DNA of 64,000 nt from Xanthostigma xanthostigma (taxonomy: Eukaryota > Arthropoda > Insecta > Raphidioptera > Raphidiidae): NCBI GenBank assembly GCA_963575645.1, contig OY754467.1:1736001-1800000 (forward strand), given 5' to 3'. How positions within the stretch are numbered: the stretch's first letter is position 1; the number at the start of each line of letters is the position of its first letter. The position numbers and the translations under genes were made by a program. Positions 15,373 to 26,733 of this stretch are shown one piece after another. The notes under the pieces were generated by a model. The model was not told where the DNA came from. It saw only the letters and a list, made by a program, of their open reading frames with translations, and searched no databases.

Positions 15373-15385
15373 TAGACTGTTTTTT

Positions 15386-15445
15386 TCAAATAAATAAAAG
15401 TGTCGATTTATTTGAAGAGTTCTATTCAGACGTTAATCAAAGATT
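15386..15445 (+). mobile_element. Minimal Penelope-like insertion (60 bp) with 13-bp duplication
   Basis: Contains only the PLE terminal segment (TTGAAGAGTTCTATTCAGACG region, ending AATCAAAGATT), preceded by the inverted AAATAAATAAAA terminus. TAGACTGTTTTTT is duplicated at 15373-15385 and 15446-15458. It is best read as an extreme 5'-truncated insertion. Confidence 0.8.
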
Positions 15446-15632
15446 TAGACTGTTTTTTAATTGTCTTTAAATGTTCATATACTATAGTCCACAGGAATTT
15501 TTATTCCGGTCAAACGTAAGCGTTACCTATACTGTGACGTCATTCTTGTAGTGCAATGGCTCTATATCGTTTACACGAGACTCGTTTAGTGTTTACTCGC
15601 GTGTGTGTAGTGTGCTGTTTATATATAAATAT

Positions 15633-16169
15633 TAGTGATGTTCCGGATCGTTAAAAATGTATATCCGCGGATACGGATCTGAATACGGATTTTTGGTTTC
15701 AAGATCCGCGGATGCGGATACGGATCTTAACTTTCTTAGAGTACGCGGCGATAAATATTGCACATCGACCTTTGGAAAGAGACTATCTGTTATGGGAAAA
15801 AGTTATTGACCTCTTTAAGAGTTAACTCTCATAACAGATTGTCTCTTTCCAAAGATCGATGTGCAATATCTCATTATAAAGATACCTAGTTGATTTAGTA
15901 CCTTCGAGTTATGTACTATTAGTATGGTATTCACTACGATAAATGTTTGCAATATAAAGGTGCCAAATACGATTTAAAAAAAATAAAAAATAATCTGAAT
16001 GGAATTTAATAGGTTTTCATTATTACCTAATCACCTATATATAAAATTCCATCTATGAATTGAAAATTAATGAGGTAAAAGATCCGTAAATGATCCGCCA
16101 AAAACTAACGGATACGGATCTTTCTTCTCCCTCGGATATCCGCGGATACGGATATCCGGCACATCACTA
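15633..16169. mobile_element. Non-autonomous hAT-like element, 537 bp
   Basis: The ends TAGTGATGTTCCGGATC and GATATCCGGCACATCACTA are inverted repeats that continue into iterated GGATACGGATCT/ATCCGCGG motifs. The flanks carry an 8-bp duplication with one mismatch (ATAAATAT 15625-15632, ATAAGTAT 16170-16177). An internal stem pairs 15757-15790 with 15838-15871 (ATTGCACATCGA / TCGATGTGCAAT). A terminus of the same family lies alone at 51835-51871. Confidence 0.85.
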
Positions 16170-16770
16170 ATAAGTATATGTGTGTTTACTGCAAGTCTGA
16201 CGTCACACTGTAAATCATCATGGCGGACAGCGTTTTATGACGTGTCAAATAATCGAATTTTAAAATTGAAATAATAAATCAACCTAGTCACTAATGTTTT
16301 TGTGAATACAAACCGACATTTTCTGATTTCTTTTTTTTTTATTTAAATATAAAACGCTCAGCAACTAAGGCTATATGCGTAAACATAAGATCAATTAAAG
16401 GTAAGTATGATTGATGAATATCAAGAACAATCAGGTTCTGATTTCTTATTCGATAAATTATGGTATTTACATAATTCATTTTGTTTATTTCTTATAGTGT
16501 CCAAAAACTAGAAGATGTTAATTTTAGCTAATATAAAGCGTAAATCCAGCAAACTATTCTACAAAATATAGCTTTTTTTATGCGTCGTTAAAGTAGTTTC
16601 ATTAAAAAAAACTTGATCTGGTTTCTTACACCAAATATAAATAGACTATGCTACTAACGATAGCCACTCCGGATAATCACTTTGTTTTTTTTTTTTATTC
16701 TGCCTAACAAAGTGACTACCAAAATAGCATGTTAAACAATTAGCAGTTACGAACAGTAGTAATAAATTTT
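16170..16770. other. Unassigned stretch
   Basis: AT-rich; no gene or repeat recognised. Confidence 0.35.
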
Positions 16771-16868
16771 CAATTCTTTGATTAACGTCTGATTAGAACT
16801 CTTCAATAAATAAAATTATCGACTAATTTTTCAGACAATAATTATTGTCGATAATTTTATTTATTGAC
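16771..16868 (-). mobile_element. Minimal Penelope-like insertion (98 bp) with 11-bp duplication
   Basis: On the minus strand this is the PLE 3' end (reverse of CTTTGATTAACGTCTGATTAG) followed by the inverted terminal segment, with facing AAAATTATCGACTAATTTTT and ATTGTCGATAATTTTATTTA. TAATAAATTTT is exactly duplicated at 16760-16770 and 16869-16879. Confidence 0.85.
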
Positions 16869-17465
16869 TAATAAATTTTGTTATCACTGTGGTTACGTAA
16901 AAGCAGTGATTAGAACAGAAACAGTAGAATACGACTAAACAAATGCTACATTGCTGTGACGTCATAGATTAAAATGCTAGAAGGTTCATCAGGGCTGATT
17001 TAAAATTGAAGAAGGACGAAGGGAACGAGGGGCGGACAAAAAAGGAACATGGTTCGTAAAGTTTTATTGCATAATGAATTCCATTTCTTTTGCACAAGCA
17101 AAATGCCGTCGGGTGTCGGTCAGTGGAATGGGGTTCGATGAAGAAGGAAGTCCGTGTGGTGATATATACGTAATATGCATTCTCTCTTTCTCTATTCCAT
17201 ATCTTTCAGAGCTCACATTTTAAACACGTAAATCAATGAAATTCCAATTTAACAATGTTGAGCGTTATTAGTTCTAAGAGAAATGTGTCTTTCTTAGACT
17301 TCTGCGCGATGAATTACGCTTTATATAATATATACAGAATATACAGAATGTAGTGAAACGAACTTTGAGATCCGTATACCATCAGTACGGGGTGGCCACG
17401 AATATTTCACTTTTCCAGTAGCCAACAGTTTTTTTTTTCATTTTCGTAAAATACGTTTTTCTATA
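16869..17465. other. Unassigned stretch
   Basis: No supported gene or repeat. Confidence 0.35.
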
Positions 17466-23898: not shown

Positions 23899-24487
23899 CT
23901 AGAGTGACCTGTGCGAATTATTCGCACTAAATAAGTATAATAATTATCACTTTACAAAATTATTTTATAAATATGATTGCAGGTATTCAATTCGTTTCTA
24001 ATTTTGCACACTGCTTATAACGTTCTTCTTTTTGTTGTATTACACTATGAAACTCAGATGACAAATCAAAGAAATATTTTACTAAAATATAGAGGCGCAA
24101 GTAGCAAAAGCGTTGAGCTAAGCCGTCAGATGGCAACATGCAGCATTGCTGTGACGTTGTTCAGCGTTGCTCGCTGTTTCAAAATTAAAGCTGTCAGATG
24201 GCAGTATGCAGTATTGTGTCTCTTGTATTACAATATGAAGGTCAGATGACAGATGGAAGTGTTGACGTTGTTTCAAAATTAAAGCCGTCAGATGGCAGAC
24301 GTTGTTCAGCGTTGCTGTTAATTAATTAATTTACAAAAACAAAAGCAATAATAAACTTTTTAGTTGTCGATGTCAGTAGAGCAAGCAATTATCTGCAAAA
24401 TGATATATAATTTATGTGGAGAAATTGTGAGGTTTTTTCTAAAAAGGGAGGCAAACATCTTAAACCTTAGCGTATTAATATATATGA
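23899..24487 (-). mobile_element. Non-autonomous Helitron, copy 5 (complete)
   Basis: CTAG at 23899 follows A, and the TC end (read as ATATATGA) is at 24487 before T. It is inserted at the A/T-rich tail of a SINE. Carries the TTAATTAACAGCAACG internal variant. Confidence 0.95.
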
Positions 24488-25062
24488 TTTATTTATGGAT
24501 TAAATCCTATCTACATCCGGGTAGCTAATTATAAGACAAATGAATAATCACTGCTTAAAGATAGATGTGTATAAATTGAGAATTTAGAACCGTGAACTTT
24601 CAACTTTATACCGACACCAATTCACCAAACTAAAACCAAACCCAGCCAAGCGTCTGGCTTCGATCACATATGAACTGATTATAACTCCATTAACGAAACA
24701 AATTGTATCATAAATCAAAAGTTGCAGACCTTAACGGAGTTGCGATGGGAAACAAACTTACTATATACGGTATAGCACAGCGGTAGTGCGTCCTTAATAC
24801 CCCCCTTCTACCCACTTCGAACATTCGACTGTAATTTATTTACAGAAAGGAAACTTTTCTATACAATGCGCTTCAACTACGGTGGCTATACTTTATTATT
24901 TTTTCAATATCTCATTTGATCAACATTTTGAAAAGATGATGAATACTTTGGCCAGAGGGGTAACTAGGCAGGGGCAACAGGGACATGCGGAAGGGGGACC
25001 CCAGAAAGGATTTAAGTATACTAAAAAAACTGTTACGTCTTTTGTCTTTAAAAAAATGAGAT
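24488..25062. other. Unassigned stretch
   Basis: No gene recognised; open frames at 24882-25133 lack motifs and overlap the repeat that follows. Confidence 0.35.
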
Positions 25063-25450
25063 TTTTGACGAAAACCGAAATCTTTTGGAATTTTGGCAAA
25101 ATCATCATGCTTATAGAAAAAAAAACACGCTAAATCCAAAGAGCACAAACAAACGTCTGTATGCCTTTTGGTTTAGAAGTTATTTGCGTTTATAGTTTTT
25201 TAGAAAATCATATAAGACCTTCGAATGGACGTAGTTTCCAAACTAAAAGAGATACAGACGTTTGCCTAAGCTCATTGAATTCAGCGTGTTTTTTTCTGTA
25301 AGCATTCTCAACTTTGAAGGTATATTAAAGAATTCGATTTTTGCAATTTTTTCAAGGCATACCCCTTTAAAAAAATGCAATTTTTGACGAAAACTGAAAT
25401 TTTTCGGAACTGGAAAAATCATCATGCTTATAGAAAAAAAAACCGCTGAA
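25063..25450. repeat. Pair of diverged ~80-bp direct repeats
   Basis: 25063-25142 and 25372-25455 both read ATTTTTGACGAAAACYGAAA, then AAATCATCATGCTTATAGAA and an A-rich run. They are separated by ~230 bp with further weak similarity in inverted orientation (CAGCGTGTTTTTTTCTGTAAG against the A-rich block). This is a local duplication of unknown origin. Confidence 0.6.
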
Positions 25451-25951
25451 TCCAGCAACGTCGTAAAACGTCGTGCGTCGTTCAAAAAAAGTTACGAAAT
25501 AAAAAAAAAATAGTATTTAATCATCCCCCCTCACCCTTCCGAAGTAACGGCACTGACTTAGCGGCCCACAAGCTAGTACAAAAAAAAAATATTTCAAATT
25601 TGACCCACTTCTCAAAAAGGTTCGTCATCACTGATCTAGAAAATCAGTCCAGAAAATATGGGTAAAAAAGTGGTTTATATCCATTACCAAGTCAGGGATG
25701 TATTTTTCTTAAGCTTACCAATATAACGATCACCACAATTTTGAAAAAAAAATTTACCTGTAACAAAAAGAAAAACAACATCAGAAAAAATGCATTACAA
25801 AAAATTTAAAAAAGTCAAGTAAATATATGAAGGACATAAAATTAGTATTAGAATAATAATGAAAATGTTTAGTTTGTTGCTCACACACGGGGCTTAAATA
25901 AAAATATATTCAAAAATACTTAAAAATAAGAATAATAATATGAGAAGGTTG
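25451..25951. other. Unassigned stretch
   Basis: Low-complexity A/T-rich DNA, no supported feature. Confidence 0.35.
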
Positions 25952-25962
25952 CATTTAAATAT

Positions 25963-26511
25963 CAAATCTTTGATTAACGTCTGAATAGAGAACTCTTCAA
26001 ATAAATAAAATTATCGAACAATTTTTTTCAGACTATATATTGACAAAAATTAAATTATAAATCAATATAACAAAAGATGACGTTTCGATCTGGATTTAGT
26101 TCTTCTTCAGAAATAAGTAGATTATACTAATTAATTTTTTATATTGTTAGATTATTTCTGTAGAAGATCTAAATCCAAATCGAAACTTATAAAATAAGTA
26201 GATTATTATTTTTTTATATTTTTAGATTATTTTATAATAGAATGCAGAAGTTAATTAATTGTCGAAAATTATGAAAAATTAATATTGATTTATAATGTGA
26301 ATTTTTAATACGGTATAGTGCGTACTACTATTTAATAATTTTAAAGAATAGCTTCTGTTGCTACATTGTTAAAACACCCATTGTTACATGTCTATATTAG
26401 AAAAATTTATTTCTCAAACAATGTCACCATCGGGATACGAACCCCCAATCTGATTTATAATTTTATTTTTGTCAATATAAAGTCTGAAAAAAATTGGTCG
26501 ACAATTTTATC
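25963..26511 (-). mobile_element. Penelope-like element (549 bp) with inverted termini and 11-bp duplication
   Basis: The left end is the reverse of the PLE 3' end (CAAATCTTTGATTAACGTCT). The right end is the inverted terminal segment (AAATTGGTCGACAATTTTAT). The two ends pair over ~58 bp. CATTTAAATAT is duplicated at 25952-25962 and 26512-26522. The interior holds two GAAGAAGATCxAAATC-type segments in opposite orientation and a tRNA-like B-box stretch near 26432-26446. No endonuclease or reverse transcriptase frame remains. Confidence 0.85.
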
Positions 26512-26733
26512 CATTTAAATATATTAAAAATGCACAACAAATCCAATGAACACGCAGCCAGATTAATGGAAATCAATAAATCACTGATCTCGGCATTTGA
26601 ACTGTCAAAGTAACATAAAATTTCTTCTCCCATCGGTGGTAAATCACTTTTCAACTGATTAATAATAATAATTATAATTTTACTCGTTTCAGAAAAGCTC
26701 TGTTGAGCATGAAACATAGTCATAATACAAAAT

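What the first reader, a model, noticed from the sequence alone, without database searches (positions are those of the whole stretch)
15373..26522. Series of miniature Penelope insertions (60-549 bp) each with its own target duplication
Insertions at 15386 (60 bp, 13-bp duplication), 16771 (98 bp, 11 bp), 23430 (122 bp, 22 bp with two mismatches) and 25963 (549 bp, 11 bp) all keep the inverted terminal segment AAAATTxTCGACxAATTTTT but no coding sequence. Insertions of only 60-100 bp that still have both termini are unusual: simple 5' truncation should not leave an inverted terminus on the 5' side. This points to a template-switch or twin-priming-like mechanism that adds the inverted terminus at the end of integration.
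Basis: partly seen in the sequence, partly recalled or inferred. Interest (0 to 1): 0.75.

Follow-up and report, generated by a model that had tools for sequence, protein, structure and literature searches.

The report
Mini Penelope insertions made by twin-priming
An abundant jumping element in this animal genome leaves tiny insertions whose two ends are both copies of the same RNA start region, one beginning about 30 bases further in than the other, which suggests that the element copies its RNA into DNA from both sides of the cut at once.

Summary
The four short insertions with their own target duplications are real, and each has an inverted terminus at its far end. They belong to a probable Penelope-like retroelement family; its 17-base 3' 'tail' word occurs 13,527 times exactly in the 623-Mb genome.

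The two ends are not equal. One stops at site T (with tail); the other starts at site N, about 30 nt inside it (no tail). Of core-sampled pairs with a duplication of 10 bp or more, 29 of 29 are one T plus one N. In loci chosen by the tail alone, 33 of 35 insertions with a duplication of 11 bp or more begin with the N arm. Lengths run from 28 bp to 2.4 kb; the commonest duplication is 13 bp.

Best reading: both staggered nicks prime reverse transcription, one at each of two RNA start sites, and the opposed cDNAs are joined where they stop. This fits in-vitro work on an anole element (PMC11167929). Inverted termini, truncation and the tail are known for this class; the one-of-each rule and 28-80 bp products were not in what I read. 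Snap-back is contradicted; an inherited terminus is unlikely. The reverse transcriptase itself was not read.

The parts
15386..15445 (+). 60-bp Penelope mini-insertion: no-tail arm about 20 nt + tail arm about 40 nt; duplication TAGACTGTTTTTT at 15373-15385 / 15446-15458
16771..16868 (-). 98-bp mini-insertion; duplication TAATAAATTTT (11 exact by eye; 13 with 1 mismatch)
23430..23551 (-). 122-bp diverged mini-insertion; 13 bp with 1 mismatch, 22 bp with 2 mismatches by eye
25963..26511 (-). 549-bp insertion, tail end at 25963, no-tail end at about 26511; duplication CATTTAAATAT; interior holds sequence outside the terminal profile
37747..38478 (+). 732-bp insertion with the C-terminal coding end of the element, hammerhead-like motif and tail end; inverted no-tail arm at its 5' edge; duplication AATGATCGTCATAT at 37733-37746 / 38479-38492
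37785..38136 (+). open frame, GIY-YIG-like endonuclease end (117 aa, stop follows)
   Evidence: PF01541 E 0.0022, 18.7 bits, below the 22.6-bit cut-off; frame
38324..38352 (+). hammerhead-ribozyme-like core CTGAAGA...GAAAC (motif recalled). The only Rfam match here is a sub-threshold CRISPR-repeat family, taken as chance
   Evidence: sequence
50726..50846 (+). probable decayed copy with no-tail end at left and a damaged tail at right (by eye); duplication not established
162..291 (+). no-tail end of a copy; its other end was not found in the window
31990..32051 (-). no-tail end of a copy interrupted at about 32056 by another repeat (by eye)

Best explanation
These are products of a probable Penelope-like element that integrates by bidirectional (twin) target-primed reverse transcription. 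Shown here on samples: insertions with clear duplications have two opposed arms copied from the same end region of the element; one arm starts at site T (profile position 168-170, with the tail) and the other at site N (134-145 in 27 of 29, no tail); they are flanked by a duplication of most often 13 bp; arm lengths vary, from under 10 nt to more than the 170-nt profile; the arms of one insertion share source variants. Inferred: an endonuclease makes a staggered double cut (about 13-nt overhang), both 3' ends prime reverse transcription, one at each of two start sites in the terminal RNA (on one RNA or on sister RNAs in one particle), and the cDNAs are joined by host end-joining wherever they stop; filling the overhang gives the duplication. 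When both cDNAs stop early the result is a mini-insertion.
For: Core-sampled loci: 29 of 29 pairs with a duplication of 10 bp or more are one T + one N, and 40 of 40 pairings with 8 bp or more; chance of 10 bp or more is 0.9%. Tail: 56 of 99 tail words in held DNA have a duplication of 11 bp or more (control 15 of 485); after dropping 3 false pairings, 50 of 53 start with an N-arm word of 8 nt or more at the edge (chance 1.5%); in the loci chosen by tail alone 33 of 35, 30 of 35 with 10 nt or more. The core and tail counts share 18 insertions or fewer. Duplication 13 bp in 28 of 53, 13-14 bp in 39 of 53; 19 of 53 insertions are 150 bp or shorter. Arms of one element match better than arms of different elements: 0.942 v 0.879, 0 of 20,000 permutations, 21 elements. 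L001 and L002 have a tail arm of only 35-38 nt, stopping near site N, with a longer N arm. Among the 150 scored of 3175 candidate coding ends, 16 of 17 neighbouring pairs within 7 kb are head-to-head and 15 of 17 have equal bit scores (random pairs 6.8%). N-arm starts overlap the target end by 1.97 nt on average (34 of 47 copies, those without extra bases) v 0.83 in simulation, P 0.00015. In vitro, the anole Poseidon protein nicks and extends both strands from two adjacent internal RNA sites, and the genomic tail is the sequence between them (PMC11167929).
Against: The reverse transcriptase of this family was not tested: the 822-aa frames were seen only as frame lengths, none was read, and none of those places is among the 150 scored RVT_1 matches of 5371 candidates. 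The GIY-YIG match is below Pfam's cut-off. In vitro no difference in start site between top and bottom strands was reported (PMC11167929), so a strict one-of-each rule was not predicted. 43 of 99 tail words have no duplication of 11 bp or more in the held DNA. Eight of 63 pairings are of one type (T/T or N/N), all with duplications of 7 bp or less; some are cross-pairings or damaged tails, L058 stays open. L083 shows no convincing N arm and L103 only a rearranged one; three more (L079, L086, L087) rest on 8-nt words. One coding pair of 17 is tail-to-tail (C5:5749561+/5750493-). Microhomology at the inner cDNA-cDNA joint is not above simulation (2.08 v 1.66, P 0.19), so the joining step is unspecified. 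13 of 47 N starts have 1-13 extra bases before the arm and are left out of the overlap test.
Confidence: 0.82

Rival explanations
1. Snap-back: a single T-primed cDNA folds back and copies itself, giving an inverted repeat.
For: Several short copies are near-perfect palindromes, for example L120, where both arms lack the same bases relative to L027 (by eye). Self-priming has been proposed for rotifer Penelope palindromes (PMC3846280).
Against: The fold-back should copy the tail, but the inverted end lacks it in 29 of 29 pairs. In L001 and L002 the N arm contains sequence that the T arm never copied, so it cannot be a copy of the T cDNA; the N arm is the longer one within the profile in 13 of 29 pairs. 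N starts match the target end.
Confidence: 0.05
2. Inherited terminus: the source RNA already carries an inverted 5' terminus, and the minis are internally deleted, MITE-like copies that amplified as families.
For: The N terminus is at a nearly fixed place. L025 and L033 share a flank and a left boundary (by eye), so some copies may have been multiplied secondarily.
Against: Arm lengths and inner joints differ between copies. Best whole-length similarity among 50 near-equal-length pairs is 0.925, in two copies that join at the same natural palindrome but carry different source letters there. All 43 elements under 420 bp have a private 20-mer, though a point change can also give one. Arms track each other's source variants.
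Confidence: 0.08
3. Template switch: one T-primed cDNA runs to its end and then switches to a second RNA, copying its terminus so that the inverted end is added last.
For: It would also give a truncation-independent inverted terminus. Foreign or displaced sequence inside L015, L074, L088 and L105 suggests that template jumps happen.
Against: A switch of the same strand to a second sense RNA would add that sequence in direct, not inverted, orientation, so a strand change is needed anyway (inference). N starts share short matches with the target end, as expected if that end is the primer. The coding sequence can lie in the N arm (L051, L035).
Confidence: 0.05

Closest known systems
Penelope/Poseidon-type Penelope-like elements; PAc of Anolis carolinensis (PMC11167929; abstract, main text and first methods read)
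   Same: Two adjacent internal RT start sites, a 30-40 bp genomic 'tail' equal to the sequence between them, A+T-rich targets, both target strands nicked and extended. In PAc the RT start lies 111-118 nt into an ORF that begins at hammerhead stem II; here the no-tail site lies about 107 nt after the corresponding point (consensus).
   Different: PAc showed no difference in start site between the strands in vitro; here insertions with clear duplications use one of each. PAc is described as tandem; the bounded pairs sampled here are inverted. The terminal region here has no long open frame (by eye).
Adineta vaga Penelope families (PMC3846280, passages)
   Same: Copies between inverted pLTRs, some with 8-10 bp duplications; truncated copies between inverted pLTRs (one stated to have no duplication); tail on one of the inverted pLTRs; palindromes at junctions; capture of foreign DNA.
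   Different: There the inverted unit is a pLTR of about 180-218 bp and copy number is called low; here arms can be under 10 nt and the tail word alone occurs more than ten thousand times.
LINE-1 twin priming (details recalled; listing only of PMC2837659)
   Same: Two target ends prime on the RNA and give opposed cDNAs inside one duplication.
   Different: Recalled for L1: a minority outcome, a variable second priming place, arms that do not overlap. Here it is the rule among bounded copies, the second start is nearly fixed, and arms share 10 or more profile positions in 26 of 29 pairs.

Membership tests
Penelope-like elements | GIY-YIG endonuclease at the C terminus | tested here: inconclusive
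   PF01541 E 0.0022 and 0.00066 for two copies, 18.7 and 20.4 bits, below the 22.6-bit cut-off; YIGQT motif visible. No solved-structure match at E up to 1.
Penelope-like elements | Telomerase-like reverse transcriptase in the same frame | tested here: inconclusive
   Open frames up to 822 aa contain the GIY-YIG match but their letters were not read; none is among the 150 scored RVT_1 matches.
Penelope-like elements | Inverted terminal repeats (pLTR) with an optional 30-40 bp tail, inside a target duplication | tested here: met
   definition from PMC3846280 and PMC11167929
Penelope-like elements | Hammerhead ribozyme near the terminus | tested here: inconclusive
   CTGAAGA-spacer-GAAAC found by a simple pattern in 16 of 23 reference copies; no Rfam hammerhead match; pairing next to the core looks weak by eye
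Penelope-like elements | A+T-rich target sites | tested here: met
   Duplications of 47 copies: 517 of 621 bases A or T (83%); window 66%
L1-type twin priming | Opposed cDNAs inside one duplication | tested here: met
   that each is primed by its own target end is inference
L1-type twin priming | Non-overlapping arms from one RNA at a variable internal priming site (recalled definition) | tested here: not met
   Second start at profile 134-145 in 27 of 29; arms share 10 or more positions in 26 of 29. L001 and L002 are exceptions that fit the L1 form
TIR DNA transposon or MITE | Matching inverted repeats of one length at both ends | tested here: not met
   In 29 of 29 bounded pairs one end has the tail and the other not; arm lengths vary

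The most novel reading that the evidence does not exclude
In this lineage integration is obligatorily two-sided: every insertion, from 28 bp to 2.4 kb in the bounded sample and probably longer ones too, consists of two opposed cDNAs, one primed from each target strand, each strand using a different one of two fixed RNA start sites. 'Truncation' and 'inverted terminus' would then be two views of one mechanism, and the mini-insertions its smallest products.
Probability: 0.7. Interest if true: 0.72.

Novelty: new member of a known kind. Interest (0 to 1): 0.6.

Why it matters
The in-vitro study of a Penelope-like element says that the later steps of integration are yet to be validated (PMC11167929). 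A natural set of probably more than ten thousand insertions with two readable start points turns that into a countable question. The one-T-one-N rule suggests a dimer in which the two subunits take different places on the terminal RNA. It may also give a dating tool, since the two arms should be identical at birth, like the two LTRs of an LTR element. It also warns annotators that short palindromic, 'MITE-like' repeats may be retroelement products.

Tried and rejected
Microhomology or palindrome joining between the two cDNAs: looked attractive (several palindromic centres), but measured overlap was not above simulation (24 clean copies); dropped as a general claim. Covariation in the terminal hairpin: too invariant, 1 of 16 predicted pairs with a two-sided change. 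Hammerhead by Rfam: no match; the one sub-threshold hit was a CRISPR-repeat family. A viral-contig scan for a 31-base tail string gave 0. Same-type pairings (8 of 63), all with duplications of 7 bp or less: L013, L046, L053 and L032 pair ends of different or nested copies; L045 has a tail with an internal deletion and L067 scored 158/168 but ends without a tail at its left; L025 lies inside an inverted repeat shared with L033; L058 abuts another repeat (hAT-like, recalled) and stays open (by eye). Apparent T/T copy L070: the flanks outside it are inverted repeats too, so it is read as a later inverted duplication. Rows dropped before the 53-count: L124, L113 and a 35-kb false pairing in the window. 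In one search the loop column is unreliable for palindromic copies and the aligner spilled over the centre; neither was used for counts.
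Full report
What is there. The four reported insertions and their duplications are present.

What the element is. The copy at 37747-38478 carries an open frame whose end looks like the GIY-YIG endonuclease of Penelope-like elements, though the Pfam score is below the curated cut-off. Downstream are a hammerhead-like motif (recalled; a simple pattern finds its core in 16 of 23 reference copies; no Rfam hammerhead match) and the terminal region. A genome search with the 117-aa end gave 3175 first-look candidates, of which 150 were scored, with open frames up to 822 aa. 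I did not read a full frame, and none of these places is among the 150 scored RVT_1 matches, so the reverse transcriptase is not verified.

Two kinds of end. A profile of the terminal region, first from three window copies and then refined on 67 loci plus the window, shows that copies end at one of two places: position 168-170 (T, with tail) or about 134-145 (N, without). In the core-sampled set, 63 head-to-head pairings were tested for duplications; 29 have an exact duplication of 10 bp or more, and all 29 pair one T end with one N end; with 8 bp or more it is 40 of 40 pairings. One N end of the 29 is at 124 and one at 149, the rest at 134-145. Eight of the 63 pairings are T/T or N/N; none has a duplication above 7 bp. 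The control, flanks paired across elements, reaches 10 bp in 0.9% of 2919 draws.

Sampling. The core-sampled loci cover 97 of the first 100 listed matches of the core pattern, all on contig 1. To avoid selecting for two arms, more loci were chosen by the tail word alone (60 loci, three of them picked because two tails lay close together). All held DNA has 99 tail words, 64 of them in these 60 loci. 56 of the 99 have a duplication of 11 bp or more upstream (control 15 of 485). Three are false pairings and were dropped. Of the 53 left, 50 begin with a no-tail-arm word of 8 nt or more (within 7 nt of the edge, up to 3 bases of the duplication allowed in; chance 1.5%); L015 has the arm slightly further in; L103 has a rearranged one; L083 has none that I can defend. 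In the tail-chosen loci it is 33 of 35, or 30 of 35 with words of 10 nt or more. The other 18 of the 53 lie in core-sampled loci or the window, so the two counts overlap. The smallest insertion, L079, is 28 bp between two 13-bp copies; its no-tail arm is about 7 nt and is weak evidence by itself, as are L086 and L087. Because tail loci reach only about 650-800 bp upstream, the length distribution is biased to short copies.

Arms. Within one insertion the arms agree in source variants (0.942 v 0.879 between insertions, 21 elements, 0 of 20,000 permutations). Either arm can be the longer one: in L001 the tail arm covers only 136-170 while the other covers 7-140; within the profile the no-tail arm is longer in 13 of 29 pairs, and in L051 and L035 coding sequence lies in the no-tail arm. 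Among the 150 scored coding ends 16 of 17 neighbouring pairs are head-to-head, 15 of 17 with equal scores; one pair is tail-to-tail and unexplained. Among successive core matches closer than 700 bp, 22 of 23 are in the same head-to-head order.

Priming. At the no-tail start the arm's natural upstream letters continue into the duplication by 1.97 nt on average in the 34 of 47 copies without extra bases; shuffled duplications give 0.55. A stricter count gives 1.56 v 0.50, 0 of 10,000 permutations. A simulation that allows for the ambiguous boundary, with assumed 13-bp duplications, gives 0.83, P 0.00015 against 1.97. This suggests that the target end anneals briefly to the A+U-rich start site. 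Thirteen copies have 1-13 extra bases there and are outside the test. The inner joint between the two cDNAs shows no excess of shared letters.

Mechanism. The no-tail arm is antisense on the top strand, so its template was most simply the sense RNA and its primer the top-strand target end; the tail arm is the ordinary bottom-strand product. The published in-vitro system extends both strands in this way (PMC11167929, main text read). What the genome adds is that, in the sample, the two start sites are shared out one per side. Snap-back is excluded for copies whose no-tail arm holds sequence that the tail arm lacks. An inherited inverted terminus is unlikely given the varied joints, but its direct genome-wide test did not run.

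Novelty. Inverted pLTRs, truncated copies between them and the tail on one side are in print (PMC3846280, passages). My searches listed no title or abstract about a one-T-one-N rule or insertions of 28-80 bp; I opened three papers (PMC3846280, PMC11167929, and Penelope passages of PMC12910113). The 2021 survey of permuted Penelope-like elements and the first Penelope paper are not held, so I cannot say that it is unpublished.

Noticed in passing
window 17837-18464, 19953-20513, 20913-21137, 23889-24488, 29341-31516, 39674-40165, 44879-45461, 49132-49670, 56160-56719: A high-copy repeat family, partly as inverted pairs, with a hairpin GCGAATAATTCGC next to a CTAGT end; looks like a Helitron-type element (recalled). 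One copy interrupts the Penelope end at about 32056.
   Followed up: no
window 33375-34080 and 34417-34885: Two neighbouring tandem arrays with periods of about 65 and 29 bp.
   Followed up: no
window 61420-61866: 148-aa open frame resembling a mariner-type transposase by eye; the only Pfam hit was a weak DUF596 match.
   Followed up: partly
window 26737-27138 (-): 134-aa frame resembling the end of a non-LTR retrotransposon polyprotein by eye; no Pfam match.
   Followed up: partly
L025 3420-3790 and L033 630-870: Two Penelope copies share about 50 bp of flank outside the no-tail end; in L025 it stands inverted on both sides. Possibly a copy carried by another repeat, or an alternative terminus.
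   Followed up: partly
L015 1087-3522, L074, L105, L088: Insertions whose interior is foreign or displaced sequence; in L015 similar frames stand in both orientations, so foreign RNA may have been copied into both arms.
   Followed up: partly
L062 720-1453: A Penelope copy lies between open frames that read like a DEAH-box RNA helicase gene (by eye), probably in an intron.
   Followed up: no
L070 218-807: Penelope tail ends inside a larger near-perfect inverted duplication that includes the flanks.
   Followed up: partly
L046 1651-1970: A tail end followed closely by a no-tail end in the same direction, a tandem arrangement unlike the inverted pairs.
   Followed up: no
window 26420-26455: Inside the 549-bp copy a stretch resembles a tRNA B box (GGTTCGTATCC on the - strand), possibly a captured or nested SINE.
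   Followed up: no
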